Origin: Ensifer adhaerens
GTDB taxonomy: Bacteria; Pseudomonadota; Alphaproteobacteria; Rhizobiales; Rhizobiaceae
Reading direction: 5' to 3'
Length of the DNA: 64,000 bases
Assembly (NCBI RefSeq): GCF_000697965.2
Contig: NZ_CP015880.1
Coordinates: 2,924,001-2,988,000, forward strand
The notes beneath the pieces were generated by a model, which did not search any database, was not told the DNA's origin, and saw only the letters and a program-made list of their open reading frames with translations. Position numbers and translations under genes: made by a program. Shown here one piece after another: positions 6,463 through 55,694 of the stretch. Position 1 is the stretch's first letter, and every line of letters begins with the position of its first letter.

Positions 6463-6897
6463 TCAGCTTCGCTCGATATCCCGCCTAAGCACGATCGAGG
6501 TGGTCAGATCCTCGACATTGTCCATCGTCGCCACCTCGTTGCGCAGCTCGTTGAGCGCATTGATCGAGCCGACCTCGACCTCGACGACGAGATCCAGCTG
6601 GCCGCTGACGGAGGACACCTTGCGGACCGCAGAGAAACCGGCAAGCCGGTCGAGCACGCCGATCGATGGCGTGCGCTTCAGCGTCACCAGCAGAAAGGCC
6701 TGAATCGTGCCCTCGTCCAGCTGGCCGATATCGGCGCGATAGCCGCGAATGACGCCGGCCTTTTCCAGTCGCGTGACCCTCTCGGTCGTCGCGCTTCTGG
6801 AGAGCCCGATCCGGCCCGCCAGCGACTTCATCGGGATCCGCGCCTCCTGCGACAGAATGCTGAGGATGGTGCGGTCGATCGCGTCGATGTCCTGCAT
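6463..6897 (-). CDS. Lrp/AsnC-family transcriptional regulator
   Basis: Protein of 144 aa with an N-terminal AsnC helix-turn-helix (IDRTILSILSQEAR; recognition helix near LSRSATTERV) and a C-terminal RAM domain. The start is at the ATG preceded by GGAGGAGGG. The reading frame continues upstream, but that part overlaps the promoter and coding region of the opposite gene. It is divergent from the large kinase/PLP fusion at 7024, and two palindromic elements lie in the 126 bp between them, so it probably controls that gene in response to an amino acid or amine. Confidence 0.88.
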   Translation of the reverse strand: MQDIDAIDRTILSILSQEARIPMKSLAGRIGLSRSATTERVTRLEKAGVIRGYRADIGQLDEGTIQAFLLVTLKRTPSIGVLDRLAGFSAVRKVSSVSGQLDLVVEVEVGSINALNELRNEVATMDNVEDLTTSIVLRRDIERS

Positions 6898-6946
6898 GTC
6901 CCCTCCTCCGTGCCTGCCGACAAGATGACGGTTATTATAAACATAG

Positions 6947-6981
6947 TGCCGGTGCAACCGGCATATTGCCGGATGCATCGG
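6947..6981. promoter_or_regulatory. Candidate Lrp-type operator (tandem palindromes)
   Basis: A palindrome with perfect 7-bp arms TGCCGGT/ACCGGCA around GCA (6947-6963) is followed 20 bp later by a degraded copy TGCCGGATGCATCGG (6967-6981). The pair lies between the divergent Lrp regulator and the fusion-protein gene, next to an AT-rich TTATTATAAA stretch that could be a -10 region. Two sites two turns apart suit an Lrp-family oligomer. Binding is inferred. Confidence 0.45.
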
Positions 6982-7023
6982 AGCACAGCCCATGCAAATC
7001 TCGTCATCGAGATGAGGATCCCC

Positions 7024-10000
7024 ATGAACGATATGCTGAAGACCACGCCCGACTTTTCGACCGAAGCGGCAGCCGCCTTGCTGAAGGAGCATTACGGCCT
7101 CTCCGCTACGCTGTCGCTGCTTGCCAGCGAACGCGATCAGAACTTCAAGGTCGAGGCTGAGGACGGCAGCATCTCCATTCTGAAGATCATCAATGGTGCC
7201 GAGCCCGAGGTCGAAAGCGATTTCCAGACCGCACTGCTCAGCCACGTCGGCGCCCATGCCGCCGACCTGCCGGTGCCGCATATCCGCCCGACGCTGTCAG
7301 GCGCGAGCCTTGCTTCGACCACGAGCACGCGCGGCGTCACCCACCGCCTGCGGCTCGTCAGCTGGGTCGAGGGCCTGCCGCTTGCCGAAACCGGGCGCAA
7401 CGATGCGGCGCTACAGTCGCTCGGACGGATGCTCGGCCGCTTCGATGCCTCGCTCAAGGGCTTCATGCATCCGGGCGCGCTACGCGATCTCGACTGGGAT
7501 ATCCGCCATGCCGGCCGCTCGACCGACCGGCTGCACCACGTCACCTCGGCCGAAGACCGTGCCTTGCTCGAACGCTTCCTTGTCCGCTTCGAAAAGTCCG
7601 TGGCGCCACGGCTTGCAACCCTCCGCGCCGCCGTCATTCACAACGACGCCAACGATTGGAACGTCCTGGTCGATAAAGTCGATCACGACACCATTTCCGG
7701 CCTCATCGATTTCGGCGACGCCCTGCATGCGCCCGTGATTGCAGAGGTGGCGATCGCCGCCGCCTATGCCGGGCTCGACCATCCCGATCCGATCGGCGCC
7801 GCTGCGGCAATCGCCCGCGGCTTCCATGCGGAGTATCCGCTGGCGGAAGAAGAGGTCGATCTGCTCTTCGATCTCATCGCCATGCGCCTCGTCACGTCGG
7901 TCACGATCTCGGCGTCCCGTCGCGCCCATACCGACGACAATCCCTATCTCGCCATCAGCGAACGGCCGGCCTGGACGCTTTTGCGCAAGCTCGACCGGAT
8001 GAATCCGCGTTTCGCCACCGCCATCCTGCGGCATGCCTGCGGCTTCGAGGCAACATCCGGTGCCCGCAAGGTTTCCGCCTGGATCAACGCGAACCGCAAG
8101 TCGCTGAAGCCACTGCTCGAACGCCCCGCCGCCACCTATCCGGCAGCGCTCGTCCCCTATGGCGACCCCACCCACCCGATGACGATAAAATCCGCTGGCG
8201 AACAGCCGGATGAAGCCCAGGCGATCTGGGAAGACTATTGTCGCGCGCATGGCGTCGAACTCGGCATCGGACCTTTTGGCGAGGAACGCACCGTCTATGC
8301 CGGCGAGATGTTCGTCTCGCGCTTCATCGACCACACCCGCCGCACTCGCCATCTCGGGCTCGACCTGTTCATGGCCGCCGGCACCAGGCTCTACACCCCG
8401 CTTGCCGCAACCGTCGTCAGCGTCGAGATCGAGAAGGACCCGCTCGGTTATGGCTGCCTGATAGCACTTCGCCATGAGCCCGAGGGATGCCCGCCCTTCG
8501 TCACGCTCTGGGGTCATATGGCGCACGAAGCCATGGGACGCATCAAGGCCGGCGACCGGCTTGCGGCCGGCGCGCTTGTCGGCGAGATGGGAGCGCCGAA
8601 GGAAAATGGCGGCTGGGCGCCGCATCTGCACCTGCAGCTTTCGACCGACACCGCTCTGTCGGCGACCGAAATCCTCGGCGTCGGCGAGCCGCAGTTCCTC
8701 GACGTCTGGACCGAACTCTTCCCCGATGCGCGCACTTTCGCCGGCATCGCCGAGGAGTTCTACGAGAAGAAAGGTCGTTCGCACGAGGAGATCGTCAAGC
8801 GCCGCAAGGAATTGCTCCTGCCGAACCTTTCGATCTCCTACGACAAGCCGATCAAGTTCGTGCGCGGCGAAGGCGTCTGGCTGATCGACGACAGCGGCCG
8901 CGCCTATCTCGATTGCTTCAACAACGTCTGCCACATCGGTCACGCCCATCCGGCAGTGGTCGAGGCGATGGCAAAGCAAGCGGCGATCCTCAACACCAAC
9001 ACCCGCTACTTGCACGACAACATCGTCGCCTATGCCGAGCGGCTGACGGCAACGCTGCCGAAGGAATTGACGGTCGCCGGTTTCGTCAACAGCGGTTCGG
9101 AGGCCAATAGCCTGGCGCTGAGGTTGATGCGCGCCCATACGGGCCGCGAGAATGCGATCACGCTCGACTGGTCCTATCACGGCACGACGCAGGAGCTGAT
9201 CGACATCAGCCCCTACAAGTTCCGCCGCAAGGGCGGCAAGGGTCCGAAGCCGCATGTGCATGTGGCAACCATTCCCGACAGTTACCATGCGCCGGCCGAC
9301 TGGCCGGCCGAGGAACACGGCAAGCGTTTTGCCGAAAGCGTCGCCGAACTGATCCAGGCCATGAAGGCCAAGGGCGAAGGCCCGGGCTTCTTCATCGCGG
9401 AATCGATCCCGAGCGTCGCCGGCCAGGTGTTCCTGCCGGAGGGCTACCTGAAGGAAGTCTATCGCCTCGTACGCGAGGCCGGCGGCGTCTGCATCGCAGA
9501 CGAAGTGCAGGTCGGTTTCGGCCGCGTCGGCAGCCATTGGTGGGCCTTCGAGACCCAAGGCGTCGTGCCTGACGTCGTCACCATGGGCAAACCGATCGGC
9601 GACGGCCATCCGCTCGCAGCCGTCGTCACCACCCGCGAGGTGACCGACAGCTTCAACAACGGCATGGAGTATTTCAATACCTTCGGCGGCAACCCGGTCT
9701 CCTGCGCCGTCGGTCTCGCGGTGCTTGACGTGATCGAAGGGCAGGATCTGCGCGGCAATGCGCTTTCGGTCGGCAACTATCTGATAGATGCCTTCCGCGC
9801 CATGCAGACCCGCTACGAGGTGATCGGCGATGTGCGCGGCATGGGTCTCTTCCTCGGCATCGAACTTGTCACCGACCGCAAGACCAAAGCACCGTCAACC
9901 GAATTCGCCCGCGCCGTCTCCAACGGCGCCCGCCGCCGCGGCGTGCTGATGGGCACCGAAGGCCCGCATGACAACATCTTGAAGATGCGCCCGCCGATGA

Positions 10001-10080
10001 TCTTCTCGAAACGCGATGCCGATCACCTGCTCGCCGTGCTCGAAGAGACTTTTGCGGACGTCGCAAGGACGCTCGGTTAA
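7024..10080 (+). CDS. Trifunctional fusion: APH-type kinase + M23-like domain + class-III PLP phospho-lyase/aminotransferase
   Basis: Protein of 1018 aa. Residues about 20-330 form an aminoglycoside-phosphotransferase/choline-kinase fold with catalytic loop HNDANDWN (H206, D208, N213) and DFGD (229-232). Residues about 395-560 form an M23/LytM-like domain that keeps all zinc ligands: HxxxD (H443, D447) and HxH (H534, H536). Residues about 590-1018 are a class-III PLP enzyme with Schiff-base Lys856 in MGKPIGDG. The PLP part is of the kind found in ethanolamine-phosphate and phosphohydroxylysine phospho-lyases, and the kinase resembles hydroxylysine-kinase-type proteins. The fusion may therefore phosphorylate an amino alcohol or hydroxy-amino acid and eliminate phosphate and ammonia. 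The ATG at 7024 has GAGG upstream; the frame is open to 6910, through the operator region. Substrate unknown. Confidence 0.85.
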
Positions 10081-10186
10081 GGCCGGGTCGAACAGCAGAA
10101 AAACCAAACGCAATGACCGGGATGCCCGACACGCATCCCGGCACGAAGACGCATGCCCTAAAAACATCAATGAGGAGAACAGGACA

Positions 10187-11209
10187 ATGAAACTTGGAAT
10201 GAAACTTGGAGTTCTGGCACTGGCGAGCACGGCATTTCTTGCCGGCACCGCCGCCAACGCCGGCATGCTCGACGTCATCAAGGAACGCGGCGAACTTCGC
10301 TGCGGTGTCAGCCAGGGCGTGCTCGGCTTTTCCGCGCCCAACGACAAGGGCGAATGGACCGGTTTCGACATCGACTTCTGCCGCGCTGTGGCTGCCGCAG
10401 CGCTCGGCAATCCCGACAAGGTGAAATACGTACCGCTGTCGACCAAGGAGCGCTTCACCGCCCTTCAGTCGGGCGAGGCCGACCTTCTTTCGCGCCAGAC
10501 CACCTGGACGCTGTCGCGCGACACCGATCTCGGCATGAGCTTCGTCGGCGTCAACTACTATGACGGCCAGGCCTTCATGGTGCGCAACGACCTCGGCGTG
10601 AAGAGCGTCAAGGAACTCTCGGGCGCCTCCGTCTGCACCGAGACCGGCACGACGACCGAACAGAACATGGCCGACTATTTCGGCGCCAACAACATCCAGT
10701 ACCAGGTCGTCGCCTTCGAAAAGGCCGACCAAACGATCCAGGCCTTCAACACCGCCCGCTGCGACGTCTATTCGACCGACGCTTCTGCGCTTTATGCCCA
10801 GCGCCTGACGCTGAACGACCCCAATCGTTTCGTCGTGCTGCCGGAAGTCATCTCCAAGGAGCCGCTCGGTCCGGCCGTCCGCCAGGGTGACGATCAGTGG
10901 TTCAAGATCGTGCGCTGGACGCTGTTCGCGCTGACCGAAGCCGAAGAACTCGGCATCACCAAGGACAATGCCGCAAAGCTTCTCGAAAGCGGCACGAACG
11001 CCCAGAAGCGCTTCCTCGGCATCGAGAACGAAGCCGGCAAGTCGCTGGGGCTCGATCCGAAGTGGGCCTACCAGGTGGTTTCCGCCGTCGGCAACTATGG
11101 CGAAGTCTTCGAACGCCACCTCGGCAAGGACAGCCCGCTGAAGATCGATCGCGGTCTCAACAAACTCTGGAGCCAGGGCGGCCTGATGTACGCCCCGCCG
11201 GCACGCTGA
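10187..11209 (+). CDS. Periplasmic amino-acid-binding protein (AapJ/BztA-like)
   Basis: Solute-binding protein family 3, 340 aa, with an N-terminal signal peptide ending around AANAG. The family pattern after it (LDVIKERGELRCGVSQGV, then GFDIDFCRAVAAA) is that of the general L-amino-acid binding protein AapJ. The protein would capture amino acids in the periplasm for an ABC permease. No permease or ATPase gene accompanies it here: it stands alone between the two large fusion genes, 106 nt after the first. GAGGAG precedes the start. It may feed a permease encoded elsewhere, and its position suggests its ligand is the substrate of the fusion enzymes (inference). Confidence 0.88.
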   Translation: MKLGMKLGVLALASTAFLAGTAANAGMLDVIKERGELRCGVSQGVLGFSAPNDKGEWTGFDIDFCRAVAAAALGNPDKVKYVPLSTKERFTALQSGEADLLSRQTTWTLSRDTDLGMSFVGVNYYDGQAFMVRNDLGVKSVKELSGASVCTETGTTTEQNMADYFGANNIQYQVVAFEKADQTIQAFNTARCDVYSTDASALYAQRLTLNDPNRFVVLPEVISKEPLGPAVRQGDDQWFKIVRWTLFALTEAEELGITKDNAAKLLESGTNAQKRFLGIENEAGKSLGLDPKWAYQVVSAVGNYGEVFERHLGKDSPLKIDRGLNKLWSQGGLMYAPPAR

Positions 11210-11277
11210 TCTCCCAGGAGCAGTTCCGGCAAAGTCTCCCGTTTGGAATTGCTCATCCAAGGAAAAGCGCCAACGAG

Positions 11278-11304
11278 ACGCCGCGGCCCTCCCCGCGGCG
11301 TTTT
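11278..11304 (+). terminator. Rho-independent terminator
   Basis: A 9-bp GC-rich stem (11278-11286 with 11293-11301) is followed by TTTT. It lies just after the amino-acid-binding protein and before the convergent minus-strand fusion gene. Confidence 0.75.
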
Positions 11305-11309
11305 CGCCT

Positions 11310-14234
11310 TTACCAGCCTTCCTCCAGCACCCGGCCCAGCATGTCGGCGAAAAAGTCGGCGCTCTCGCAGGATAGGCAGAGCGGCGGCTTGATCTTCAGC
11401 ACGTTCAGGTGGTCGCCGGTCGGCTGCATGATGACGCCGAGATCGAGCAGGCGGTCGCAGATCGCCGCCGTCTCCTCGGTCGCCGGCGACAGGGTCTCCC
11501 GATCGCGCACGAATTCGACGCCGAGATAGAGTCCCATGCCATGCACCGCGCCGATCAGCGGGAAGTGCTGCCCTAGCGCTTCGAGCCGCGCCTTCAGATA
11601 GCCGCCGACCACCTGTGCGTTTTCCGGCAACCGTTCTTCGGTCAGGATATCCAGGACCACCTGCCCGACGACGGAGCTCACCGGGCTGCCGCCCGAGGAC
11701 GAGAAGAAGTACCCCTCCTTCTCCAGCGCATCGGCGATCTCGCGGCGGGTGATGACGGCGCCGAGCGGATGGCCGTTACCCATGCCCTTGGCGACGGTAA
11801 TGATATCGGGCACGACGCCCTGCTCCTCGAAGCCCCAAAAATAGTCTCCGAGGCGACCATAACCGACCTGCACCTCGTCGGCGATGCAGACGCCGCCGCG
11901 GGCCCGCACCATGGCATAGACCGCGTCGAGATAGCCCTTCGGCAGCGGAATACCGCCGGCATTGCCGTAGACCGGTTCGCAGATGAAGCCCGCGAGCTTC
12001 TCGTCCGCCGCGTCCAGCTCGGTCAGTTTCTTGACGACGGAGCGCACATAGCTGTCGGTCGTGTCGGCGCCGCGGAACTCGCCGCGATAGGTGTTGGGCG
12101 CGGTGACCGGATGCACCCAGGCCGGGCGGGTTTCGAGCGCCTGCGGATTGTCGGCGATCGAGGTCGACACTGCGTCGCTCGCGACCGTCCAGCCGTGATA
12201 GGCCTCGAGCAGGCTCACGATGTTGCGCGCGCCGGAATAGGCCCAGGCGAGCCGCAGTGCCAGATCGTTCGCCTCCGAGCCGCTGTTGACCAGAAACACC
12301 GTGTCGAGCCCATCCGGCGCGAGCGCTGCAAGCCGCGTCGAGAGTTCGGCGACGGAGGCATAGTGAAAACGCGAATTGGTGTTGAGCAGTGACCATTGCC
12401 GCCCCACCGCGGCTGCAAGCCGCGGATGCCCATGGCCGAGAATGGTCACGTTGTTGACCATGTCGAGATAGCTGCGGCCCTCGATGTCGAACAAATGGTC
12501 CTTCCAGCCGCGCTCGATCTGCGGTGGTTTCAGGTAGTAGTTCTTCTGCGGCCTGGCGAAGTGCTGCTGGCGGCGGGCAAGCAGTGTTTCGCTGTGCGGC
12601 TCCGGCCCATCGCATTCGAAGCCGAGGACGCCGGCCGGCGACGGGCACAAGTGCTTCCACGCCGCCGCCTGACGCGGCACGACGAAAAGCGGAGGCACGA
12701 GACCATGCTCGCGGCAAAGCTGGACGCGGATCAGGCCGTAGGAGTGCTGTTCACCAGAGACGACGCCCAGCACGGCACCAGCAACGATCGTCTCCTCGAG
12801 GTCGGCACCGGCTCCCACGCCCTCGAGAAACAGGCTGGCTTCGGCCCCTTCGAGCACCAGCAGCCCGTCCTGCCGGACGATACGGGCGGCAAAGGGAGCG
12901 ACAATCTCGCGACCGGCCTCCAGGCAGATGTCGACATGCAGTGCGAAGGTGGCATCGGGCTTCGGTGACCGCAGCTGGGTCTCCGTCATCCGGTATTCGC
13001 CATAGCGCGTCGTCGCGATGCCGATTGCATGGGCGGCGTGTTGCAGCAGCGAGATCGGCAATCCCTGGTGCTGCCAGCGCTCCTCTGGCAACAGCGGGCT
13101 CAGGATCGAGAGGTCGATCTGGCGCACGTCAGTGGGGCCGAGCCCCTGGATCAGGCTCTCACCGGTCACTCGGGCCGAGTCCGGTGCGAAGCCGACGGCC
13201 GAAAGAATGGCGTGCTCCATCAATGCCGAAGGCACCGACGACGCGACCTCGAAGATCTCCCGCTCATGCGCGGCATTGCCCTCGACGTAAGCATTGTCGG
13301 GCTCGCGGGAGAGCTGGTGTTCGGAGCTTGCGACCAGCACCGCAGCGCGCGCGACGATCAGCGGCCAAAGCGCCTTCAGTTCCACCTCGGTCAACGGGCA
13401 TGCCGCATGAAACGCCTTGACCGCGGGTAGGATGAACCAGGGGTCTCCATCCGCATGATGCAGCAGCGAGGCGCAGGTAACAGCGAGTTCTGCAACCAGC
13501 CAGCCATTGAGGATATCGCCGAAGTCGATGACGCCGTCCGGCATCGCCCGGCCGGCCACGTCGAGCCGGCTGACCACATTGTCGTCGGTGACGTCATGGT
13601 GGATCGCCTGGGTTCTGAGCTCAGGGGTAAGCGGCTGCAACCGCCGCATGGCACCGACCATCAGTTCAGCGATGCGCTTCTTGCGCTGCTGGTCCGCCAT
13701 ATCGGTAAGCAGATGCAGGACGACGGGGCCGGCGCGCCTCAGATCCCATTGCAGTTCCCGCTCGAGCCCCGGATGCTCGAAGTCCTCCAATGCCGACGCG
13801 AGCTGACCCGCCAGGCCGCCGAGAGCAGCCACGGCTTCGCGCGACAGATGTTTGCGCCGGGTGAGCGGTTCGCCTTCGAGATAGGTGAGCAAGCGGATGC
13901 GATAATCCGCGCCGCGGACGGCAACGCTCTCGATCGCCTCGCCCTTGAGAGAGGGCACGACCTCAGCAACGCGTGCCGTCGGCAGACGTTTGCCAAGGTG
14001 CCGCAAGGCCGCATTCTGCGCTTCCAGTTCCAGCGGTTCGTATTCCGCCCGGCAGATCTTCAGCACATAGCGCCGCTCGCCGGTGTCGAGACGGTAGTTG
14101 CGGTCCTGCTGGCTGCCGAGCTCGCTGATCGTGCCCGACAGGCCATAGTGTTCGGCGAGCAGCGAACGCGCCTCCTCGGCGCCGACATCGGGTCTCGGGA
14201 GCTCGGTGCGAAGCTTCAGCGGGTCCTCAACCAT
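11310..14234 (-). CDS. Second fusion: APH-type kinase + degenerate M23-like domain + class-III PLP enzyme
   Basis: Protein of 974 aa with the same three-part layout as the fusion at 7024, but diverged. The kinase part has catalytic loop HHDVTDDN (H212, D214, N219) and DFGD (237-240). The middle region (about 400-530) aligns with the M23 domain, but the zinc ligands are lost: HLGLD becomes ALHVD (A431, D435) and HLHLQL becomes LIRVQL (L501, R503). The C-terminal PLP enzyme keeps Schiff-base Lys816 in AKGMGNGHPLG. Kinase and PLP sites look intact, so a phosphorylate-then-eliminate reaction is possible here too, probably on a different substrate. The gene is convergent with the amino-acid-binding protein and lies 115 nt downstream of hutC on the same strand, so read-through from hutC is possible. 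Confidence 0.85.
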   Translation of the reverse strand: MVEDPLKLRTELPRPDVGAEEARSLLAEHYGLSGTISELGSQQDRNYRLDTGERRYVLKICRAEYEPLELEAQNAALRHLGKRLPTARVAEVVPSLKGEAIESVAVRGADYRIRLLTYLEGEPLTRRKHLSREAVAALGGLAGQLASALEDFEHPGLERELQWDLRRAGPVVLHLLTDMADQQRKKRIAELMVGAMRRLQPLTPELRTQAIHHDVTDDNVVSRLDVAGRAMPDGVIDFGDILNGWLVAELAVTCASLLHHADGDPWFILPAVKAFHAACPLTEVELKALWPLIVARAAVLVASSEHQLSREPDNAYVEGNAAHEREIFEVASSVPSALMEHAILSAVGFAPDSARVTGESLIQGLGPTDVRQIDLSILSPLLPEERWQHQGLPISLLQHAAHAIGIATTRYGEYRMTETQLRSPKPDATFALHVDICLEAGREIVAPFAARIVRQDGLLVLEGAEASLFLEGVGAGADLEETIVAGAVLGVVSGEQHSYGLIRVQLCREHGLVPPLFVVPRQAAAWKHLCPSPAGVLGFECDGPEPHSETLLARRQQHFARPQKNYYLKPPQIERGWKDHLFDIEGRSYLDMVNNVTILGHGHPRLAAAVGRQWSLLNTNSRFHYASVAELSTRLAALAPDGLDTVFLVNSGSEANDLALRLAWAYSGARNIVSLLEAYHGWTVASDAVSTSIADNPQALETRPAWVHPVTAPNTYRGEFRGADTTDSYVRSVVKKLTELDAADEKLAGFICEPVYGNAGGIPLPKGYLDAVYAMVRARGGVCIADEVQVGYGRLGDYFWGFEEQGVVPDIITVAKGMGNGHPLGAVITRREIADALEKEGYFFSSSGGSPVSSVVGQVVLDILTEERLPENAQVVGGYLKARLEALGQHFPLIGAVHGMGLYLGVEFVRDRETLSPATEETAAICDRLLDLGVIMQPTGDHLNVLKIKPPLCLSCESADFFADMLGRVLEEGW

Positions 14235-15096: not shown

Positions 15097-15196
15097 CTCA
15101 AGCCCCGCCTTTCCGCGCCGCCGAACAAATCATGCGCATTCGCCCTCGAATCTTTTCGTTCATTTCACGCTTGCGCGCCAGCGTAAAATATCTATA

Positions 15197-15210
15197 GTTC
15201 CATATACAAC
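15197..15210. promoter_or_regulatory. Candidate HutC operator
   Basis: The imperfect palindrome GTTCCATATACAAC lies between divergent hutC and hutF. One half matches the TTGTATA-type half-site expected for HutC-like GntR regulators, and 10 of 14 positions are symmetric. It sits about 20 bp before the hutF start, where a bound repressor would block transcription. Inference from motif and position only. Confidence 0.4.
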
Positions 15211-15229
15211 TACGTACAGGAAAATGCAC

Positions 15230-16606
15230 ATGGCTAGTTTTCCCGTCAACCGGATCTTTGCAGAACGGGCTCTCCTGCCCGGCGGCTGGGCCGAAAACGT
15301 CGCGATTTCGCTCGACGCTTCCGGTCGCATCGCAGCGATCGAAACCGGCAGCGCCGCCGCTAGCAGCGACGAGCGCACGGCCGGGCCGCTGATCCCGGCG
15401 ATCGCCAACCTTCACTCCCACGCCTTCCAGCGCGCCATGGCCGGCCTTGCCGAAGTGGCGGGCAGCGGCGACGACAGCTTCTGGACCTGGCGCGAGGAAA
15501 TGTATCGCACCGTCGGGCTGGTAAACCCTGACGACGTCGAGGCGATCGCCGCCAAGCTCTACATGGAAATGCTGAAGGGTGGTTTCGGCCACGTCGCCGA
15601 GTTTCACTATCTGCACCACCAGGCCGACGGCACCCCCTATGCCGACCCGGCCGAAATGTCGCTGCGCATTCTCGCTGCCGCCCGCACGACCGGCATCGGC
15701 CTCACGCATTTGCCTGTCTTCTACGCCCACGCCAATTTCGGCGGCGTCGCGCCCAATCCCGGCCAGCGGCCGTTCCTGCACGATCCTGATCATTTCCTCG
15801 CACTGCTTGAGCGGCTCGCGCCGCTCTGCCGCGACGCCGGCCATACGCTCGGCTACGCCATCCATTCGCTGCGCGCCGCAACGCCCGAGGAGATGCGCAT
15901 CATCCTCGATGCCGCACCCGTTGCCGGTCCGATCCACATCCATGTGGCCGAGCAGACCAAGGAAGTCGACGACAGCCTCGCCTGGAGCGGCCGCCGCCCG
16001 GTCGAGTGGCTGCTCGATGAAATGCCCGTCGACGCACGCTGGTGCGCAATCCACGCAACGCATCTGACGGAAAGCGAACGGCAGCGTCTGGCGCGTTCGG
16101 GCGCCGTTGCCGGACTCTGCCCGGCGACCGAGGCCAATCTCGGCGACGGCATTTTCCCGGCGGTCGATTTCATGGCCGAAGGCGGCGTCATCGGCGTCGG
16201 CACCGACAGCCACGTGGCGACCAGCGTCGCCGAGGAACTGCGGCTGCTCGAATACGGCCAGCGCCTGCGCGACCGCCGCCGCAACCGGCTGGCCACCGGG
16301 CCGGGCGCCTCGATCGGCCGAACCATCTTCGACGCGGCGCTCAAGGGCGGCGCCCAGGCCGCCGGTCAGAAGGCGGCCGGCATCACCGTCGGCGCGCGCG
16401 CAGATTTCGTCGTGCTTGACGGCAGCAATCCCTACATCGCCGCCGCCACCGACAACCAGATCCTCGACCGCTGGCTCTTTGCACTCGGCGGCGAGACTGT
16501 CCGCGACGTCATGGTCGCGGGCGCGTGGAAGATCCGGAACGGACGCCACGACCGGGAGGACGATATCGACCGCGCCTTTGCGCGGGTGCTGATGAAACTG
16601 AAGTAA
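15230..16606 (+). CDS. hutF: Formimidoylglutamate deiminase HutF
   Basis: Amidohydrolase-superfamily enzyme of about 458 aa. It converts N-formimino-L-glutamate to N-formylglutamate and ammonia, the fourth step of the five-step histidine pathway used by pseudomonads and rhizobia. Metal-site motifs are NLHSHAFQRAMAG (near 57), HIHVAEQ (near 235), HATHL (near 275) and GTDSHV (near 325). Two in-frame ATGs exist: 15224 is only 2 nt after AGGA, whereas 15230 is 8 nt after it and is preferred. It is the first gene of a probable hutF-hutX-hutW-hutV-hutH-hutD transcription unit. Confidence 0.92.
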   Translation: MASFPVNRIFAERALLPGGWAENVAISLDASGRIAAIETGSAAASSDERTAGPLIPAIANLHSHAFQRAMAGLAEVAGSGDDSFWTWREEMYRTVGLVNPDDVEAIAAKLYMEMLKGGFGHVAEFHYLHHQADGTPYADPAEMSLRILAAARTTGIGLTHLPVFYAHANFGGVAPNPGQRPFLHDPDHFLALLERLAPLCRDAGHTLGYAIHSLRAATPEEMRIILDAAPVAGPIHIHVAEQTKEVDDSLAWSGRRPVEWLLDEMPVDARWCAIHATHLTESERQRLARSGAVAGLCPATEANLGDGIFPAVDFMAEGGVIGVGTDSHVATSVAEELRLLEYGQRLRDRRRNRLATGPGASIGRTIFDAALKGGAQAAGQKAAGITVGARADFVVLDGSNPYIAAATDNQILDRWLFALGGETVRDVMVAGAWKIRNGRHDREDDIDRAFARVLMKLK

Positions 16607-16642: not shown

Positions 16643-17677
16643 ATGTCGATCAACAAATTGAAACTCACCCTGGCCGCAACCGGCCTCGTGCTCGCGGCCT
16701 CCACCGGCAGCGCCAGCGCTTCGTATTGCGGCGACGGCAAGACCGTCATGTTCGCCGGCATCGATTGGGAAAGCGGCGCCTTCATCACCGAAGTGATGAA
16801 GACCATTCTTGCCAAGGGCTACGACTGCCAGGTGGATTCGATCCCCGGCAACTCGGTGACGCTGGAACAGGCAACCGCCAACAACGACGTCCAGATCTTC
16901 GCCGAGGAATGGCTCGGCCGTTCGGACGTCTGGAACAAGGCGGTCGAGGAAAAGAAGGTCGTCGCCGTCGGCAAGACCTTCGTCGGCGCCAGCGAAGGCT
17001 GGTTCGTGCCGGAATACGTCATCAAGGGCGATGCGTCGCGCAGCCTTGAAGCCAAGGCGCCGGACCTGAAGAGCGTGTCGCAGCTCTCCGACCCCAAGAT
17101 CGTCGAGCTCTTCGCCGATCCGGAAGAGCCCAGCAAGGGCCGCTTCCTCAACTGCCCCTCGGGTTGGACCTGCGAGGGCGTCAGCTCCGCCAAGCTCGAA
17201 GCCTACAAGCTCGGCGAAACCTATGTGAACTTCCGCCCGGGCACCGGCACGGCGCTCGATTCCGCCATCACGTCCGCTTACCTCCAGGGCGAACCGATCC
17301 TCTTCTACTACTGGTCGCCGACGGCGATCATGGGCAAGTTCAAGCTCGTGCAACTCGAAGAGCCGGCCTATAGCGAAGAGTGCTGGAAGGAGCTTTCGAG
17401 CGCCAACGGCAAGCGCGAGCAGGGCTGCGCCTTCCCGTCGGTCGACGTCTCCTACGGCGTCAACAGCACCTTCGCGCAGGAAGCCCCTGAAATCATCGCC
17501 ATCCTCGAAAAGGCGACTTTCCCGCTCGACGCCGTCAACGGCAGCCTCGCCTACATGGCCGACAACAAGGTCGACGCGACGGCAGCGGCCGCCGAGTTCC
17601 TGAAAACCAAGGCCGATGTCTGGGGCAAGTGGGTTTCGGACGAAGCCCGCGGCAAGATCGAAGCCAGCCTCAAGTAA
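16643..17677 (+). CDS. hutX: Histidine/betaine ABC transporter substrate-binding protein HutX
   Basis: Periplasmic binding protein of 344 aa in the glycine betaine/proline (OpuAC/ProX) family, with a signal peptide cleaved near SASAS. It lies 36 nt after hutF and is followed by the matching permease and ATPase. In Sinorhizobium meliloti the HutXWV system has been described as a histidine transporter that also takes betaines and proline. The position inside a hut region supports the same role here. Confidence 0.88.
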   Translation: MSINKLKLTLAATGLVLAASTGSASASYCGDGKTVMFAGIDWESGAFITEVMKTILAKGYDCQVDSIPGNSVTLEQATANNDVQIFAEEWLGRSDVWNKAVEEKKVVAVGKTFVGASEGWFVPEYVIKGDASRSLEAKAPDLKSVSQLSDPKIVELFADPEEPSKGRFLNCPSGWTCEGVSSAKLEAYKLGETYVNFRPGTGTALDSAITSAYLQGEPILFYYWSPTAIMGKFKLVQLEEPAYSEECWKELSSANGKREQGCAFPSVDVSYGVNSTFAQEAPEIIAILEKATFPLDAVNGSLAYMADNKVDATAAAAEFLKTKADVWGKWVSDEARGKIEASLK

Positions 17678-17820: not shown

Positions 17821-18678
17821 ATGTTTCCGGATTCTCTCAATCTCTCCATTCGCGGGCCGGTGAACGATTTCATCCAGGCGCTGGTCAGCGGTTATGGCTG
17901 GGTCTTCAAGGCGATCAGCGCCGTCATTCTGAAAGCCGTTCTATTCATCGAATGGATCCTGCGCGGCCTGCCCTGGTGGGTCGTCATCCTGATCTTCATG
18001 GCGCTCGCCTGGCAAAGCTCGAAGCGCTGGACCCTGACGGTCGCCGTCGGCGTGCTGCTGTTCTTCGTCGGCGTGCTCGGCCTCTGGGACCTGACGATGC
18101 AGACGCTCGCCCTGATGCTGATGGCAACGATCGTCTCCGTCGTCATCGGCGTGCCGATGGGCATCTTCGTCGCCAAGAGCCGGACCGTGCGCAGCATCAC
18201 CCTGCCGGTGCTCGACGTCATGCAGACGATGCCGAGCTTCGTCTACCTGATCCCGGCCTTGATGCTCTTCGGCCTCGGCAAGGTCCCGGCGATCCTCGCC
18301 ACCATCATCTATGCCGTGCCGCCACTCATTCGCCTTACCGATCTTGGCATCCGCCAGGTCGACCATGAAGTGGTGGAAGCAGCGACCGCTTTCGGCGGCA
18401 GCCCCAACCAGATCCTCTTCGGTGTCGAGCTGCCACTCGCTACGCCGACAATCATGGCCGGCCTCAACCAGACGATCATGATGGCGCTGTCGATGGTGGT
18501 CGTCGCCTCGATGATCGGCGCCCGCGGCCTCGGCGAGCAGGTGCTGAACGGCATCCAGACGCTCGACGTCGGCAAGGGGCTGGAAGCCGGTATCGGCATC
18601 GTCATTCTCGCGATCGTTCTCGACCGCATCACGCAAGGCTTCGGCAAGAGCCGGACGGAGGATCCCCGCAATGGCTGA
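17821..18678 (+). CDS. hutW: Histidine/betaine ABC transporter permease HutW
   Basis: Inner-membrane permease, 285 aa, of the glycine betaine/proline transporter family (ProW/OpuAB). It has about six membrane segments and a BPD_transp_1 domain in which the coupling-helix region reads EAATAFGGSPNQILFGVELPLATPTI (near 190-215). Its stop overlaps the hutV start by 8 bp, indicating translational coupling. It forms the channel of HutXWV. Confidence 0.9.
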   Translation: MFPDSLNLSIRGPVNDFIQALVSGYGWVFKAISAVILKAVLFIEWILRGLPWWVVILIFMALAWQSSKRWTLTVAVGVLLFFVGVLGLWDLTMQTLALMLMATIVSVVIGVPMGIFVAKSRTVRSITLPVLDVMQTMPSFVYLIPALMLFGLGKVPAILATIIYAVPPLIRLTDLGIRQVDHEVVEAATAFGGSPNQILFGVELPLATPTIMAGLNQTIMMALSMVVVASMIGARGLGEQVLNGIQTLDVGKGLEAGIGIVILAIVLDRITQGFGKSRTEDPRNG

Positions 18679-19498
18679 TATCGAGATCCGCAACGTCTAC
18701 AAGATCTTCGGGCAGGACGCGAAAGCCGCACTCGCCATGGCCAAGGAAGGGCTCAACAAGTCCGAAATCCTCGCCCGCTCCGGTTGCAGCGTCGGTCTCA
18801 ACAATGTCAGCCTGACGATCGGCGCCGGCAAGATCTTTGTAATCATGGGGCTTTCCGGCTCCGGCAAGTCGACGCTGGTGCGCCATATCAACCGGCTGAT
18901 CGAGCCGACCAGCGGCGAAGTGGCCTTCGACGGCAGCAACATCCTGGACCTCGACGCCAAAGCGCTGCGCACCTTCCGGATGCACCGCGTGAGCATGGTG
19001 TTCCAAAGCTTCGCGCTGATGCCGCATCGCACCGTGCTGCAGAACGTCATCTACGGCCAGCGCGTGCGCGGCCTGCCCAAGGCCGAGGCCCGCGACATCG
19101 GCATGAAATGGATCGAGACCGTCGGCCTTGCCGGCTACGACGCCAAGTACCCGCATCAGCTTTCCGGCGGCATGAAGCAGCGCGTCGGCTTGGCTAGGGC
19201 GCTGGCCGCCGATACCGATGTGATCCTGATGGACGAGGCCTTCTCGGCACTCGACCCCTTGATCCGCGCCGACATGCAGGACCAGTTGCTGCAGTTGCAG
19301 CAGAACCTTTCAAAGACCATCGTCTTCATCACCCATGATCTCGACGAGGCGCTGCGCATCGGTTCGGAAATCGCCATCCTCAAGGACGGCCAGGTGGTGC
19401 AGGTCGGCACGCCGGACGATATTCTGGAACGGCCGGCCAACGATTACGTTGCCCGCTTCGTGCAACGCCGACAGGGACGACCGGAAGCCCATGAGTGA
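18671..19498 (+). CDS. hutV: Histidine/betaine ABC transporter ATP-binding protein HutV
   Basis: ABC ATPase of 275 aa. Walker A is GLSGSGKST (near 60), the signature is LSGGMKQRVGLARAL (near 162-176), and Walker B is VILMDEAFSALDP (near 184-196). It belongs to the ProV/OpuAA family but ends soon after the ATPase domain and has no room for the C-terminal CBS domains of ProV. It overlaps hutW by 8 bp at its start and the HutH-like gene by 8 bp at its end. Confidence 0.9.
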   Translation: MADIEIRNVYKIFGQDAKAALAMAKEGLNKSEILARSGCSVGLNNVSLTIGAGKIFVIMGLSGSGKSTLVRHINRLIEPTSGEVAFDGSNILDLDAKALRTFRMHRVSMVFQSFALMPHRTVLQNVIYGQRVRGLPKAEARDIGMKWIETVGLAGYDAKYPHQLSGGMKQRVGLARALAADTDVILMDEAFSALDPLIRADMQDQLLQLQQNLSKTIVFITHDLDEALRIGSEIAILKDGQVVQVGTPDDILERPANDYVARFVQRRQGRPEAHE

Positions 19499-20972
19499 GA
19501 ATGTAGTCCTCGATGCACCACTGACCTGGAAGCAAATCGCAGCGGTCGCCAATGGCGCACCGCTCGCGCTTTCCGATGCAGCACGCCAGCGCATCGTCCA
19601 CGCTCGCCGGGTCGTCGACGCTCTGGTCGAGCGCGGCATCCGCGGCTACGGCATCAACACCGGTGTCGGCGCGCTCTGCGACGTCGTCATCGACCGCGAG
19701 AACCAGCAGGCGCTATCGCGCAACATCATCCTCAGCCATTCCTGCGGCGTTGGCGAACCGCTCGCCCGGCCCGAAGCCCGGGCGGTGATGGCCGCCCAGA
19801 TCGCCAACTTCGCCCACGGCTATTCCGGCGTGCGCATCGAGACAGTCGAGGCGCTGCTGGCACTGCTCAACGCCAACCTCATCCCCGACATCCCCTCGCG
19901 CGGCTCGGTCGGCTATCTCACCCATGCGGCCGCGATCGGCCTCGTGCTGATCGGCCACGGCACCGTCGATGACGGCAAGGGCAAGATCAGCGGCGTCGAG
20001 GCGCTCGCGCGGATCGGCCTCAAGCCGCTCAGGCTCGAAGCCAAGGAGGGCCTGAGCCTTGTCAACGGCACGCCCTGCGCCACCGGCCTTGCGGCATTGG
20101 CACTGTCGCGCGCTACGCACCTCTTCGACTGGGCGGATGCCGCCGCCGCGATGACCTATGAAAACCTCGGCAGCCAGGCGAATGCCTTTGCCGCCGGTCC
20201 ATTGGCGCTTCGCCGCTCCAAGGGGCTGGATGAGGTCGGAGCATCCTTGCGCGATTTTCTTGCCGGCAGCCCGATGCTCGCCGAGACCGCCGGCACCCGC
20301 ACGCAGGATCCTTTAAGCCTTCGTGCCGTGCCGCATGTGCATGGCGCTGCCCGCGATGCACTGGCCCACGTCGCCGAAGTCGTTGACCGCGAGCTTGCAA
20401 GCCTCACCGACAACCCGGCCGTGTCGGGCACGCCCGAAGCGCCGGAGGTGCATTCGCAGGCCCATGCGGTGGGCGCTGCACTCGGCCTTGCCATGGACAG
20501 CCTGGCCGTCGCCGTTGCCGAAGTCGCTGCCATCTCCGAGCGCCGCATCGACCGGCTCGTCAATCCGCTGGTGAGCCGCCTGCCGGCCTTCCTCGCCGGC
20601 GATAGCGGTGTTGCCTCCGGCTTGATGATCGCCCAGTACACCGCCGCCTCACTTGCCGCTGAAAACCGGCGCCTCGCGGCCCCCGCCAGCCTCGATGGCG
20701 GCATCACCTCGGCGCTGCAGGAGGACATCCTGACGCATGCGACGCCGGCCGCCTGGAAGGCACTTGCCATCGCCGACAACCTCGAAACGATCCTTTCGAT
20801 CGAACTGCTTGCGGCGTCGCAGGCCTATGACCTGCAGCCGCGTGGCCGCGCCGCACGCACCGACGCGCTTTACCGGCGCATTCGCTCGGAAATCCCCACC
20901 TATGCCGACGACCGGCCGCTCAACGGCGACTTCGCCCGCATGCGCACACTGATCGAAGGAGGCACGCCATGA
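19491..20972 (+). CDS. HutH-family aromatic amino acid lyase homologue lacking the MIO triad
   Basis: Protein of 493 aa, clearly homologous to histidine ammonia-lyase along its length (YGINTGVGAL near 50; EGLSLVNGT near 190; QED near 405). The segment that normally reads GSVGASGDLAPLAH reads GSVGYLTHAA at residues 138-147: exactly the three residues Ala-Ser-Gly that cyclise into the MIO electrophile are absent, and the flanking sequence aligns without other gaps. The active-site Tyr of the DPYSLR motif is also replaced, giving DPLSLR (Leu275). A normal MIO-dependent deamination of histidine is therefore not expected. It overlaps hutV by 8 bp and hutD by 4 bp, so it is a well-kept member of the operon. 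Annotation pipelines will probably call it hutH. Confidence 0.88.
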   Translation: MSENVVLDAPLTWKQIAAVANGAPLALSDAARQRIVHARRVVDALVERGIRGYGINTGVGALCDVVIDRENQQALSRNIILSHSCGVGEPLARPEARAVMAAQIANFAHGYSGVRIETVEALLALLNANLIPDIPSRGSVGYLTHAAAIGLVLIGHGTVDDGKGKISGVEALARIGLKPLRLEAKEGLSLVNGTPCATGLAALALSRATHLFDWADAAAAMTYENLGSQANAFAAGPLALRRSKGLDEVGASLRDFLAGSPMLAETAGTRTQDPLSLRAVPHVHGAARDALAHVAEVVDRELASLTDNPAVSGTPEAPEVHSQAHAVGAALGLAMDSLAVAVAEVAAISERRIDRLVNPLVSRLPAFLAGDSGVASGLMIAQYTAASLAAENRRLAAPASLDGGITSALQEDILTHATPAAWKALAIADNLETILSIELLAASQAYDLQPRGRAARTDALYRRIRSEIPTYADDRPLNGDFARMRTLIEGGTP

Positions 20973-21550
20973 AGCTGCTTTGCGCGAAAGACTACAAGCG
21001 CATGCCCTGGAAGAACGGCGGCGGTGAGACGGTGGAGATCGCCATTTTCCCCGAGAAGGCGTCGCTTGCCGATTTCGACTGGCGCGTCAGCATGGCGACC
21101 GTCGCCACCGATGGCCCCTTCTCCAGCTTCCCCGGTATCGACCGCACGCTGTCGATCCTTCAGGGCAAGGGTATGCGGCTGATGATCGAGGGTCGCAAGC
21201 CCGCTTTGTTGACCGGCGAGACGGCGCCGCTCCCCTTCCCGGCCGACGTCGCGACATCAGCGACCCTCGTCGACGGTCCGATCGTCGACCTCAACGTCAT
21301 GACACGGCGCGGCAGGCTCACGCACTCGGTTCAGCGACTGGCACTCGATCATCCGCACAGGGCAGAAAGCCTGGGGGGCACGACCCTCGTGCTTTGCCAC
21401 GGCGGCGCCGTGCGGTTGACCGCAAGTGACGCCACGGCCGAACTGGCAGCGGGCGACACGGCCGTGCTGACGGGTGCAGCCTCCTTAACCATCGAACCGG
21501 CGGCCTCTGCCGTCCTCTTCCTGATCACCATCGACAAGCCGGCCGCCTGA
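20969..21550 (+). CDS. hutD: HutD-family cupin protein
   Basis: Protein of 193 aa of the HutD/Ves family. It opens with the family pattern MPWKNGGGET (residues 12-21), continues with DFDWRVSMATV and FPGIDRTLSILQG, and has a bicupin fold. In Pseudomonas fluorescens HutD is thought to set an upper limit on hut expression, possibly by binding formylglutamate; its exact role is unsettled. The start overlaps the HutH-like stop as ATGA. Last gene of the hut run. Confidence 0.88.
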   Translation: MKLLCAKDYKRMPWKNGGGETVEIAIFPEKASLADFDWRVSMATVATDGPFSSFPGIDRTLSILQGKGMRLMIEGRKPALLTGETAPLPFPADVATSATLVDGPIVDLNVMTRRGRLTHSVQRLALDHPHRAESLGGTTLVLCHGGAVRLTASDATAELAAGDTAVLTGAASLTIEPAASAVLFLITIDKPAA

Positions 21551-47598: not shown

Positions 47599-48777
47599 TC
47601 AGGCCGCGGCCTGTGCCAGCGTTGCCTTCTGGCTCTCGAAAGCCCAGGTTAGCCATGGCATCAGCGCCGTCATGTCGGCGGCCTCGATCGTGGCGCCGGC
47701 CCAGATGCGAAGACCGGACGGGGCATCGCGGTAATGGCCGATGTCGAAGGCGACGCCTTCCTTTTCGAGGAGCGCAACCACGCCCTTGGCAAAGGCCGCC
47801 TGTCCGTCGGCGTCGAGCGCGAGCACGTCCTTGTCGACGATCTTCAAGCAGACCGAGGTGTTGGAGCGGGTCTCGTCCTTGACCGCCAGGTTTGCGATCC
47901 AATCGTTGGCGGCGACGAAATCGAAGATTGCCTGCGCATTGGCATCAGCCCGGGCCATCAGGCCCTTGAGCCCGCCGACCTGCTGCGCCCAAAGCAGCGC
48001 ATCGATGTAATCTTCGACGCAAAGCATCGACGGCGTGTTGATGGTTTCGCCGGTAAAGATGCCTTCAATCAGCTTTCCGCCCGAGGTCATGCGGAAGATC
48101 TTCGGCAGCGGCCAGGCCGGCACGTAGGTCAGCAGCCGTTCGACGGCGCGCGGCGACAGGATTATGACGCCATGGGCGCCCTCTCCGCCAAGAACCTTCT
48201 GCCAGGAGAAAGTGACGACGTCGAGCTTGGCGAAATCGAGGTTCTGCGCAAACGCGGCAGAGGTCGCATCGCAGATCGTCAGGCCCTTGCGGTCAGCCGG
48301 GATGAAGTCGCCGTTGGGCACACGCACGCCCGAGGTCGTGCCGTTCCAGGTGAAGACCACGTCGCGGTCGAAATCGACCTTCGAAAGGTCGGGAAGTTCG
48401 CCGTAACCGGCTTCGAACTTGCGTACGTCGGCGAGCTTCAGCTGCTTGACCACGTCGGTCACCCAGCCGGCGCCAAAGCTTTCCCAGGCGACCATGTCGA
48501 CGCCGCGCGGACCGAGCAGCGACCAGAGCGCCATTTCGACGGCGCCGGTGTCGGAAGCGGGCACGATACCGATACGGTAGTCGGCCGGCACTTCAAGAAT
48601 GTCACGGGTAAGATCGATGGCCTGCTTCAGCTTCGTCTTGCCGATCTTGGCGCGGTGCGAACGACCGAGCGGAGCATCGGAGAGAGCGTCGAGCGTCCAA
48701 CCGGGGCGCTTCGAGCAAGGGCCAGAAGAGAAATGGGTATTGTTCGGACGGAGGTCCGGCTGTGCAGGCTTTGCCAT
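47599..48777 (-). CDS. serC: Phosphoserine aminotransferase SerC
   Basis: Class-V PLP aminotransferase of 392 aa that makes 3-phosphoserine from 3-phosphohydroxypyruvate. The opening [18 protein letters not shown] and the PLP site [13 protein letters not shown] (Lys near 197) are the alphaproteobacterial SerC type. The ribosome site GGAAGGA lies inside a hairpin of the leader directly upstream. Second gene of the pathway, together with serA downstream. Confidence 0.95.
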
Positions 48778-48779
48778 GT

Positions 48780-48818
48780 GCTATCCTTCCAGATAGATAG
48801 CCCTTCGTTGGGGAAGGG
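48780..48818 (-). ncRNA. serC leader RNA (serC motif)
   Basis: Immediately before the serC ATG (48777) the minus-strand transcript can form two adjacent hairpins. The first is CCCTTC-CCCAAC-GAAGGG (48801-48818). The second is GCTATC...GATAGC (48780-48801), which contains the ribosome-binding sequence GGAAGGA. A conserved two-hairpin element upstream of serC-serA operons is known from Rhizobiales as the serC motif, and position and layout match. The ligand or mechanism of that element is unknown. Confidence 0.6.
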
Positions 48819-48967
48819 TGTCCCGCCGCTGTAGCTACTGGAAAGCCCGGAATTCCGCAATAGCCAAAATGAAAGCCCTGCAAGTTTGAACAGAAGTCGT
48901 CAGAACGATTCCAGAACGTGTCAGCCGGATTGGCACAAAATTGACACACCCGAGTCCTGATTCGTTC

Positions 48968-50697: not shown

Positions 50698-51504
50698 CTA
50701 TTTCCTCTTGAAGAGAGCTGCGAGGGCTTGGAGGAGACGCGCTAGCCAGTGCGTTTCGGTAGTAGGAGGCTCTGAATTGGCAGGCGAGACGGGCTTAGGC
50801 GGCGCTAAAGTCGGTTCAGCGCCGGGTGAAGCCGGTTGATAACGCGCCTCAGTGAGGGCGCTTTCGAATGCCTTACCGTATTTGTCGATGTCCCCGCCGT
50901 TCGCAGCCAGATCTCCGTTGATGATGGCGCGGGAGGCGTAATACTTGAATGCAGGCTTCGGGGGCTGGACGAACAGCATATAGTCGTAGTCGGACAGCTT
51001 GCGGCCGGTGAACAGACCCTTCTCCATGCCGTCGAAAAGGATGCGGACGGCGGTTGCCATGTCCTTCGCGGCATCAGGGTTGCCGGCGATCCCGAACTTG
51101 GCATAGTTCGTCTTGCCGGTAATCTGAGCGAGGCCCCTGCCCCGATATGTCCAACCGTCATCCGGGCCGTCATTCCCAAGCCTGCCGCCATAGACCTTAT
51201 TGGCAAGCCGTCGCGGGTTGTTGGCATATGGCTTGGCGCTGGCGACGGTCGGGAACCGGTTCGGCCATACCTGCGTCATGCGCTGTGCCGAATAGTTCAG
51301 GTTCTCCTCTACGGGCTGCATTGCGCCGCCCGTCTCGTGATAGGCTTCAGCTAGAATAGCCGCGAGGTGAAAGAGGCTTGTGCCGCGCTTCTCAGCCTCG
51401 TCGAGGATGGCATTGACGCCATCGACCTGTTTTTGGCTGAGAGAGGTTCCGAATACGCCTGACGTGCGTCCGCGCAGTGCTGCGTAAAACGCGGCTCTGT
51501 TCAT
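50698..51504 (-). CDS. Phage endolysin, GH19 chitinase/lysozyme-like
   Basis: Protein of 268 aa. The catalytic domain (1-195) is of glycoside hydrolase family 19 type: ILAEAYHETGGAMQPVEENLNYSAQRM carries the first catalytic Glu (near 55), and TYRGRGLAQITGKTNYAKFG is the substrate-site motif. A Pro-rich linker (PASPGAEPTLAPPKPVSP) leads to an amphipathic C-terminal helix ending in KRK that could touch the membrane. It cleaves peptidoglycan during host lysis. Confidence 0.85.
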   Translation of the reverse strand: MNRAAFYAALRGRTSGVFGTSLSQKQVDGVNAILDEAEKRGTSLFHLAAILAEAYHETGGAMQPVEENLNYSAQRMTQVWPNRFPTVASAKPYANNPRRLANKVYGGRLGNDGPDDGWTYRGRGLAQITGKTNYAKFGIAGNPDAAKDMATAVRILFDGMEKGLFTGRKLSDYDYMLFVQPPKPAFKYYASRAIINGDLAANGGDIDKYGKAFESALTEARYQPASPGAEPTLAPPKPVSPANSEPPTTETHWLARLLQALAALFKRK

Positions 51505-51526
51505 GAGTTCACCTTTTTCTGGATAC

Positions 51527-51553
51527 GAAAAAACCCCGCTCGATGGCGGGGCT
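51527..51553 (-). terminator. Terminator after the FkbM gene
   Basis: On the minus strand AGCCCCGC-CATCGA-GCGGGGTT (8 bp including one G-U) followed by a run of T. It separates the tail/FkbM genes from the lysis cluster. Confidence 0.75.
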
Positions 51554-51582
51554 CTTGGAGGCGGCTTGGTCTGGTTATTTCG

Positions 51583-52293: not shown

Positions 52294-52348
52294 TGGTTGG
52301 TTGTCTCCCTTGCCACGCCTTTTAAGCAGATGCGTGGCAAGGTTGCAA

Positions 52349-55686: not shown

Positions 55687-55694
55687 GTTTCACC

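What the first reader, a model, noticed from the sequence alone, without database searches (positions are those of the whole stretch)
19491..20972. HutH-family protein in a hut operon without the MIO-forming Ala-Ser-Gly triad
Seen: residues 138-147 read GSVGYLTHAA where HutH/PAL/TAL enzymes have GSVGASGDLAPLAH; exactly three residues (ASG) are missing and the rest aligns. The DPYSLR Tyr is Leu275. Known: ammonia-lyases of this family need MIO, made from ASG. Inference: this is not an ordinary histidine ammonia-lyase. It may be a non-catalytic partner of a canonical HutH elsewhere, a binding protein, or an enzyme with different chemistry. The intact frame, 4-8 bp overlaps with hutV and hutD, and otherwise conserved fold argue it is kept under selection.
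Basis: partly seen in the sequence, partly recalled or inferred. Interest (0 to 1): 0.78.

Follow-up and report, generated by a model that had tools for sequence, protein, structure and literature searches.

The report
Cofactor-free HutH relative, probable hercynine lyase
A gene labelled as the enzyme that strips ammonia from histidine lacks the built-in cofactor that reaction needs; it belongs to a conserved family that most likely removes trimethylamine from a methylated histidine instead, which can be tested directly.

Summary
The protein at 19491-20972 has GSVGYLTHAA where histidine ammonia-lyases have GSVGASGDLAP, and Leu275 where they have Tyr280. It is no assembly error: 71 of the 80 relatives kept lack ASG; the clade forms one clan (100/100) and keeps six other active-site residues in 90 of 90 distinct sequences. 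The genome also holds a canonical HutH beside HutU, HutG and HutI on another contig, and a third, ergothionase-like lyase inside an ergothioneine-degradation cluster, so neither histidine nor ergothioneine is the obvious substrate. The gene overlaps the last gene of a glycine-betaine-type ABC importer and lies with hutF, hutD and hutC. Relatives sit beside BCCT betaine carriers and canonical urocanate hydratase; an Agrobacterium relative sits in an S-methyl-ergothioneine-type operon. Best reading: a MIO-independent lyase that splits hercynine (trimethylhistidine) into trimethylamine and urocanate for the Hut pathway. The reaction is inferred, not shown. Two draft genomes with no HutH-type gene keep hut genes around it, which fits this reading but also a MIO-free histidase. 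MIO-free trimethylamine lyases are known (ergothionase), so this is a new variant of a known kind.

The parts
19491..20972 (+). ASG-less HutH-family lyase (493 aa, P0001), the finding
   Evidence: AF2 model mean pLDDT 92.2 with HAL fold
19902..19931 (+). codons 138-147, GSVGYLTHAA: the place where MIO would form; Tyr142 replaces ASGD
   Evidence: Tyr142 in 90 of 90 clade members
20313..20315 (+). Leu275 codon (Tyr280 of Pseudomonas HAL, numbering recalled)
   Evidence: Leu in 90 of 90 clade members, Tyr in 31 of 31 MIO-type sequences
19647..19649 (+). Tyr53 codon, conserved active-site Tyr
   Evidence: 90 of 90
20721..20723 (+). Glu411 codon (Glu414 of HAL, numbering recalled)
   Evidence: 90 of 90
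18671..19498 (+). hutV, ABC ATPase of the betaine/proline/choline family (overlaps the lyase by 8 bp)
   Evidence: TIGR01186 348.7 bits, cut-off 326.6
17821..18678 (+). hutW, permease nearest to choline/glycine betaine permeases
   Evidence: TIGR03416 295.8 bits, below its cut-off 363
16643..17677 (+). hutX, OpuAC-type (glycine betaine class) substrate-binding protein
   Evidence: PF04069 205 bits; the five PDB sequences matched are glycine betaine/proline/choline-binding proteins
15224..16606 (+). hutF, formimidoylglutamate deiminase
   Evidence: TIGR02022 710.6 bits, cut-off 413
20969..21550 (+). hutD
   Evidence: PF05962 197 bits
14350..15096 (-). hutC, histidine utilisation repressor, divergent
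   Evidence: TIGR02018 293.9 bits, cut-off 220

Best explanation
The protein is a MIO-independent betaine lyase of the HutH fold. The HutXWV importer brings in hercynine (N-alpha-trimethylhistidine). The enzyme then removes a beta-proton (probably through Tyr53, with Glu411, His83 and Arg278 holding imidazole and carboxylate) and expels trimethylamine, giving urocanate. Trimethylamine leaves from a quaternary nitrogen without needing the MIO electrophile, so ASG is not needed; the absence of MIO, Tyr280 and Phe329 makes room for the trimethylammonium group. Urocanate goes on through HutU and HutI (from the canonical operon on contig C2), then HutF in this operon. Shown: sequence, conservation, gene neighbourhoods and fold model. 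Inferred: substrate, products and roles of residues.
For: (1) No MIO triad, Leu275, and Ala/Pro/Cys at the Phe329 place, with Tyr53, His83, Asn192, Gln272, Arg278 and Glu411 invariant in 90 of 90. (2) Same genome: canonical HutH with ASG (749 bits, cut-off 539) beside HutU, HutG and HutI on C2, and a separate ergothioneine cluster with thiourocanate hydratase (1056 bits, cut-off 930), thiohydantoin desulfurase, ErtD, ErtE and its own ergothionase-like lyase. (3) Betaine-type importer in the operon; some relatives have BCCT carriers directly upstream (L064, L065, L067, L068) or OsmF-like OpuAC systems; OpuAC or BCCT in 15 of 71 ASG-less loci against 1 of 20 canonical control loci. (4) HutU was found within about 6 kb in 23 of 71 loci, each nearer to HutU than to thiourocanate hydratase; 7 of these were tested with NCBIfam and all 7 are over the urocanate hydratase cut-off and under both thiourocanate cut-offs. 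(5) An A. tumefaciens clade member (64% identical) sits in an operon with S-methyl thiourocanate hydratase, S-methyl thiohydantoin desulfurase, ErtD, ErtE and an OpuAC importer, a pathway whose substrate should be a trimethylammonium betaine. (6) Precedent: ergothionase lacks MIO (passage in PMC13405746).
Against: No activity has been measured. The nearest solved structures by sequence and fold are true HALs, not ergothionase. In 42 of 71 relatives the nearby importer is of the lysine/arginine/histidine SBP_bac_3 type, and 18 of 71 have an N-methyltryptophan-oxidase-like neighbour, which hints at other N-methylated substrates. In Gluconobacter (2 PF00221 genes) and Salinicola (3), none is of HutH type, so the clade member could there be the histidase. 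The S. [quoted passage not shown] EgtD was not found in the genome (none of the 14 control genomes passed that model's cut-off either), so hercynine would have to come from outside. A palindrome scan found no HutC operator in front of hutF.
Confidence: 0.55

Rival explanations
1. It is a trimethylamine lyase for S-methyl-ergothioneine, ergothioneine or ergothioneine sulfonate rather than hercynine.
For: A 64% identical A. tumefaciens relative sits in an S-methyl-ergothioneine-type operon; HutX is of betaine type.
Against: The window operon has no thiourocanate hydratase or desulfurase; these are in the separate cluster with another lyase. hutU near the clade is canonical in 7 of 7 tested; thiourocanate hydratase, ErtD or thiohydantoin desulfurase was the best match of no frame in any of 71 loci (about 6 kb each side; the S-methyl variants were not among the queries).
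Confidence: 0.15
2. It acts on a mono- or dimethylated histidine or another imidazole amino acid derivative with a good leaving group.
For: N-methyl amino acid oxidase-like gene beside 18 of 71 relatives; residues held to bind imidazole and carboxylate are kept.
Against: The 18 are all of the GSAGYL subtype, not the window's GSVGYL; betaine-type importers favour a quaternary amine.
Confidence: 0.12
3. It is a histidine ammonia-lyase that works without MIO.
For: Closest fold and sequence are HALs; Gluconobacter and Salinicola drafts have no HutH-type PF00221 gene but keep hut genes round the clade member.
Against: In 6 of 8 genomes checked gene by gene an ASG-bearing HutH-type lyase is also present, as in the window's genome; [quoted passage not shown] Tyr280 and Phe329 are gone.
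Confidence: 0.09
4. It is a non-catalytic partner, regulator or histidine-binding relative of HutH.
For: It lacks the cofactor triad and lies in a hut operon.
Against: Active-site residues are invariant in 90 of 90; purifying selection; frequent neighbourhood with an importer; place in an S-methyl-ergothioneine-type operon with no other HutH-family gene annotated.
Confidence: 0.06

Closest known systems
Histidine ammonia-lyase HutH (PF00221; TIGR01225; 1b8f, 7tqr)
   Different: No ASG/MIO, Leu for Tyr280, Ala for Phe329, below both curated HutH cut-offs
Ergothionase (6s7j, Treponema denticola) and the ergothionase-like lyase of this genome (P0002)
   Different: Separate clan; active-site Asn as in HAL; no thiourocanate genes next to it; E-value to 6s7j 1.7e-48 against 1.9e-83 to HAL 7tqr
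Pseudomonas HutH1 of the hutTu-hutXWV-hutH1 insert
   Same: hutXWV followed by the ASG-less gene in unnamed f44 genomes L138 and L139
   Different: The SBW25 sequence itself was not compared; [quoted passage not shown]

Membership tests
Histidine ammonia-lyase (HutH) | PF00221 fold over full length | tested here: met
   493 bits, profile 1-465 of 466; AF2 model and fold matches
Histidine ammonia-lyase (HutH) | Ala-Ser-Gly that forms MIO | tested here: not met
   ASGD replaced by Tyr
Histidine ammonia-lyase (HutH) | Tyr280 in DPYSLR | tested here: not met
   Leu275; Leu in 90 of 90 clade members
Histidine ammonia-lyase (HutH) | Score above curated HutH models | tested here: not met
   457.8 < 539.15 and 466.6 < 524
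Histidine ammonia-lyase (HutH) | Urocanate and ammonia from histidine | not testable with these tools
   needs an assay
MIO-free trimethylamine lyase (ergothionase kind) | HAL fold without MIO | tested here: met
   that ergothionase lacks MIO is from PMC13405746 (passage)
MIO-free trimethylamine lyase (ergothionase kind) | Common clade with 6s7j | tested here: inconclusive
   own clan 100/100; together with ergothionase types one side of a branch with support only 65/71
MIO-free trimethylamine lyase (ergothionase kind) | Gene next to thiourocanate hydratase and desulfurase | tested here: not met
   in this genome they lie with P0002, about 587 kb away; met only for the A. tumefaciens relative, with the S-methyl variants
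MIO-free trimethylamine lyase (ergothionase kind) | Release of trimethylamine | not testable with these tools
   needs an assay
Hut (histidine utilisation) operon | hutC, hutF, hutD and transporter genes together | tested here: met
   HutU, HutG, HutI and canonical HutH lie on C2 instead

The most novel reading that the evidence does not exclude
The clade is a whole, so far unnamed enzyme family, hercynine trimethylamine-lyase, which makes the Hut pathway a hercynine-degradation pathway in many Alpha-, Beta- and Gammaproteobacteria annotated only for histidine. MIO-free betaine lyases may even be one old branch of the HAL fold (this clade plus the ergothionase types, support 65/71), with MIO absent there from the start rather than lost twice.
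Probability: 0.43. Interest if true: 0.72.

Novelty: new variant of a known kind. Interest (0 to 1): 0.6.

Why it matters
Many genes now labelled hutH would be something else, and the puzzle of a dispensable 'histidase' that travels with a betaine-class importer would have an answer. It would link a soil and fungal betaine, hercynine, to nitrogen and carbon supply in rhizobia and pseudomonads, add a source of trimethylamine, and show how the HAL fold does elimination without its cofactor.

Tried and rejected
Sequencing error or decayed gene: rejected, since 71 of 71 close relatives share the change and dN/dS is 0.10-0.20 (NG86, five pairs; 0.095 for the canonical HutH in one pair). Window protein as the ergothionase of this genome: disfavoured, the ergothioneine cluster with its own lyase is about 587 kb away on the same contig. 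Shared HutC operator: a palindrome scan of the hutC-hutF gap (15097-15223) and upstream of C2 hutI gave nothing. Literature: no paper describing this clade was seen in the listings of searches, in an open-licence library only. Maurer 2019, Zhang and Rainey 2007, Boncompagni 2000 and one more paper looked up by a DOI recalled from memory are not held. Yan 2022 (ergothioneine sulfonate pathway of A. radiobacter), seen only as a citation, may concern a member of this clade; I could not check. PMC12772324 calls PA5093 hutG (passages), so I make no claim on PA5093. HAL residue numbers (Tyr53, His83, Asn195, Gln277, Tyr280, Arg283, Phe329, Glu414) and their roles are recalled, except that Y280F and F329A appear in PDB titles.

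Limits of the counts. Canonical pattern: 43 of 44 genomes with a clade member match it (45 of 71 loci given, one not held), but a match is not a HutH. Of 8 genomes checked gene by gene with PF00221, 6 have an ASG-bearing lyase in the clan of canonical HutH (one of the 6, L119, also tested over the NCBIfam cut-off). Gluconobacter has none, and the ASG-bearing gene of Salinicola (L120) is not HutH (377.5 bits, cut-off 539.15) although that genome matched the pattern. Phylum sample: 34 of 398 genomes matched the ASG-less pattern (35 places); the reversed control pattern hit in 10 by my count of the table; of 30 places with loci, 22 lie in a relative of this protein and 8 do not; 5 were not inspected. 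Those 22 genomes all match the canonical pattern, against 154 of 376 others, but kinship was not corrected for, matches were not checked one by one, and at least one of the 22, G352 (its contig has the length of the Salinicola L064 contig), carries the L120 case. Importer control: the 20 control stretches come from 19 of the same genomes, two are cut by contig ends, two (L153, L162) score low (275 and 238 bits) and may be other lyases, and one (L156) also contains a clade member; 12 of the 71 case loci also hold a canonical gene.

Full report
The reading of the sequence is right. Residues 138-147 are GSVGYLTHAA, the MIO triad is absent, Leu275 stands for the usual Tyr, and the frame is intact and overlaps hutV by 8 bp and hutD by 4 bp. 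The protein is a full-length PF00221 member but falls below both curated HutH models. In the alignments ASGD is replaced by one Tyr.

It is a conserved clade. Among 90 distinct clade members, Tyr53, His83, Tyr142, Asn192, Gln272, Leu275, Arg278 and Glu411 never vary. Among 31 MIO-type sequences Tyr stands at the Leu275 place in 31 and Phe at the Phe329 place in 31, whereas the clade has Ala (71), Pro (18) or Cys (1) there. dN/dS to five relatives is 0.096-0.197. The clade is one side of a branch at 100/100 in a 49-row tree and 100/99 in a 31-row tree with aminomutases. Whether it shares its MIO-free state with ergothionase by descent is open (65/71; the ergothionase rows are long branches).

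The genome has three PF00221 genes. One, on contig C2, has GSVGASGD, scores 749 bits on the HutH model and lies in HutI-HutH-HutG-HutU order; its HutU scores 692 on the thiourocanate hydratase model, under the cut-off of 930. The third, P0002, is closest to ergothionase 6s7j in the PDB (E 7.5e-54 against 3.4e-39 for the next) and lies beside ErtD, ErtE, thiohydantoin desulfurase and thiourocanate hydratase, these four above their NCBIfam cut-offs. Histidine and ergothioneine therefore seem to have their own lyases. EgtD was not found (that search had no control genome above the cut-off), so hercynine would be taken from outside.

The window operon reads hutF-hutX-hutW-hutV-lyase-hutD with hutC divergent. 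HutXWV is of glycine betaine/choline type. In relatives the lyase lies with HutXWV, or a BCCT carrier directly upstream (L064, L065, L067, L068), or an OsmF-like OpuAC system (L044, L057, L070), or an SBP_bac_3 amino-acid system. Within about 6 kb, an OpuAC or BCCT gene was seen in 15 of 71 ASG-less loci and 1 of 20 canonical loci taken as control; an SBP_bac_3 protein in 42 of 71 against 2 of 20. The control is not a random sample; its flaws are listed under Tried and rejected. In 18 of 71 an N-methyltryptophan-oxidase-like gene lies just downstream; all 18 are of the GSAGYL subtype.

The product is probably urocanate. HutU was found in 23 of 71 loci; the seven tested are over the urocanate hydratase cut-off and below the thiourocanate cut-offs. 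In a draft Gluconobacter genome both PF00221 genes lack ASG, yet hutI, hutF, hutG and hutU lie in the locus of the clade member. In a Salinicola draft the three PF00221 genes are a clade member behind a BCCT carrier, another ASG-less type, and an ASG-bearing gene that is not HutH (377.5 bits against 539.15), while hutU, hutI and hutF lie round the clade member. Urocanate would then have to come from something other than a HutH-type lyase: hercynine, or histidine by MIO-free chemistry. By pattern alone, 43 of 44 genomes with the clade also hold an ASG-bearing lyase motif.

That the clade handles trimethylammonium betaines is best supported by a plasmid of A. tumefaciens FDAARGOS_1048. There a 64% identical member, with an OpuAC importer, lies in an operon with S-methyl thiourocanate hydratase (975.8 bits, cut-off 880), S-methyl thiohydantoin desulfurase (555.1, 450), ErtD (782.8, 600) and ErtE (576.1, 520). 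It is the only HutH-family gene annotated in the 32 kb shown. Such a pathway would be expected to start by removing trimethylamine. S-methyl-ergothioneine is hercynine with a methylthio group on an aromatic imidazole (general knowledge), so a sister enzyme acting on hercynine is a small step.

Literature, as seen: a 2026 paper states that ergothionase lacks the MIO cofactor (passages, PMC13405746). [quoted passage not shown] An S. [quoted passage not shown] I saw no paper on a hercynine lyase in the searches named under Tried and rejected; the library holds open-licence papers only.

Conclusion: an enzyme of a conserved MIO-free clade, most likely a hercynine trimethylamine-lyase feeding urocanate to the Hut pathway. 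Shown: the sequence change, its conservation, the gene neighbourhoods, and separate histidine and ergothioneine systems in the same genome. Inferred: substrate, chemistry, roles of residues.

Noticed in passing
L136 (own genome C1:2342001-2362000), 6500-14094: Ergothioneine-utilisation cluster: thiourocanate hydratase, thiohydantoin desulfurase, ErtE, ErtD and an ASG-less ergothionase-like lyase (P0002); a carnitine 3-dehydrogenase and a GbdR-like regulator lie close by.
   Followed up: partly
L172 (A. tumefaciens NZ_CP066273.1 61075-74546): S-methyl-ergothioneine-type operon that also holds a BisC-family molybdopterin S/N-oxide reductase (below its cut-off) and a glutathione S-transferase of unknown role.
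   Followed up: partly
L144 and L064 (Salinicola): Two different ASG-less lyases (GSVGYLTH and GSLGAADL types) in one hut cluster with canonical hutU, a BCCT carrier and an OsmF-like protein; no HutH-type gene among the three PF00221 genes of that draft genome.
   Followed up: partly
18 loci between L022 and L073 (cluster c8): N-methyltryptophan-oxidase-like FAD enzyme just downstream of GSAGYL-type lyases; perhaps it demethylates N-methylhistidine.
   Followed up: no
window 50698-61018: Run of genes that look like a prophage by eye (lysin-like, tail-spike-like and structural proteins); most score low or are missed by a codon-usage gene caller trained on the hut genes.
   Followed up: no
window 11310-14234 (-): 974-aa protein with a phosphotransferase (APH, PF01636) domain joined to a class III aminotransferase (PF00202).
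   Followed up: no
window 48776-48828 (-): serC leader RNA (Rfam RF00517).
   Followed up: no
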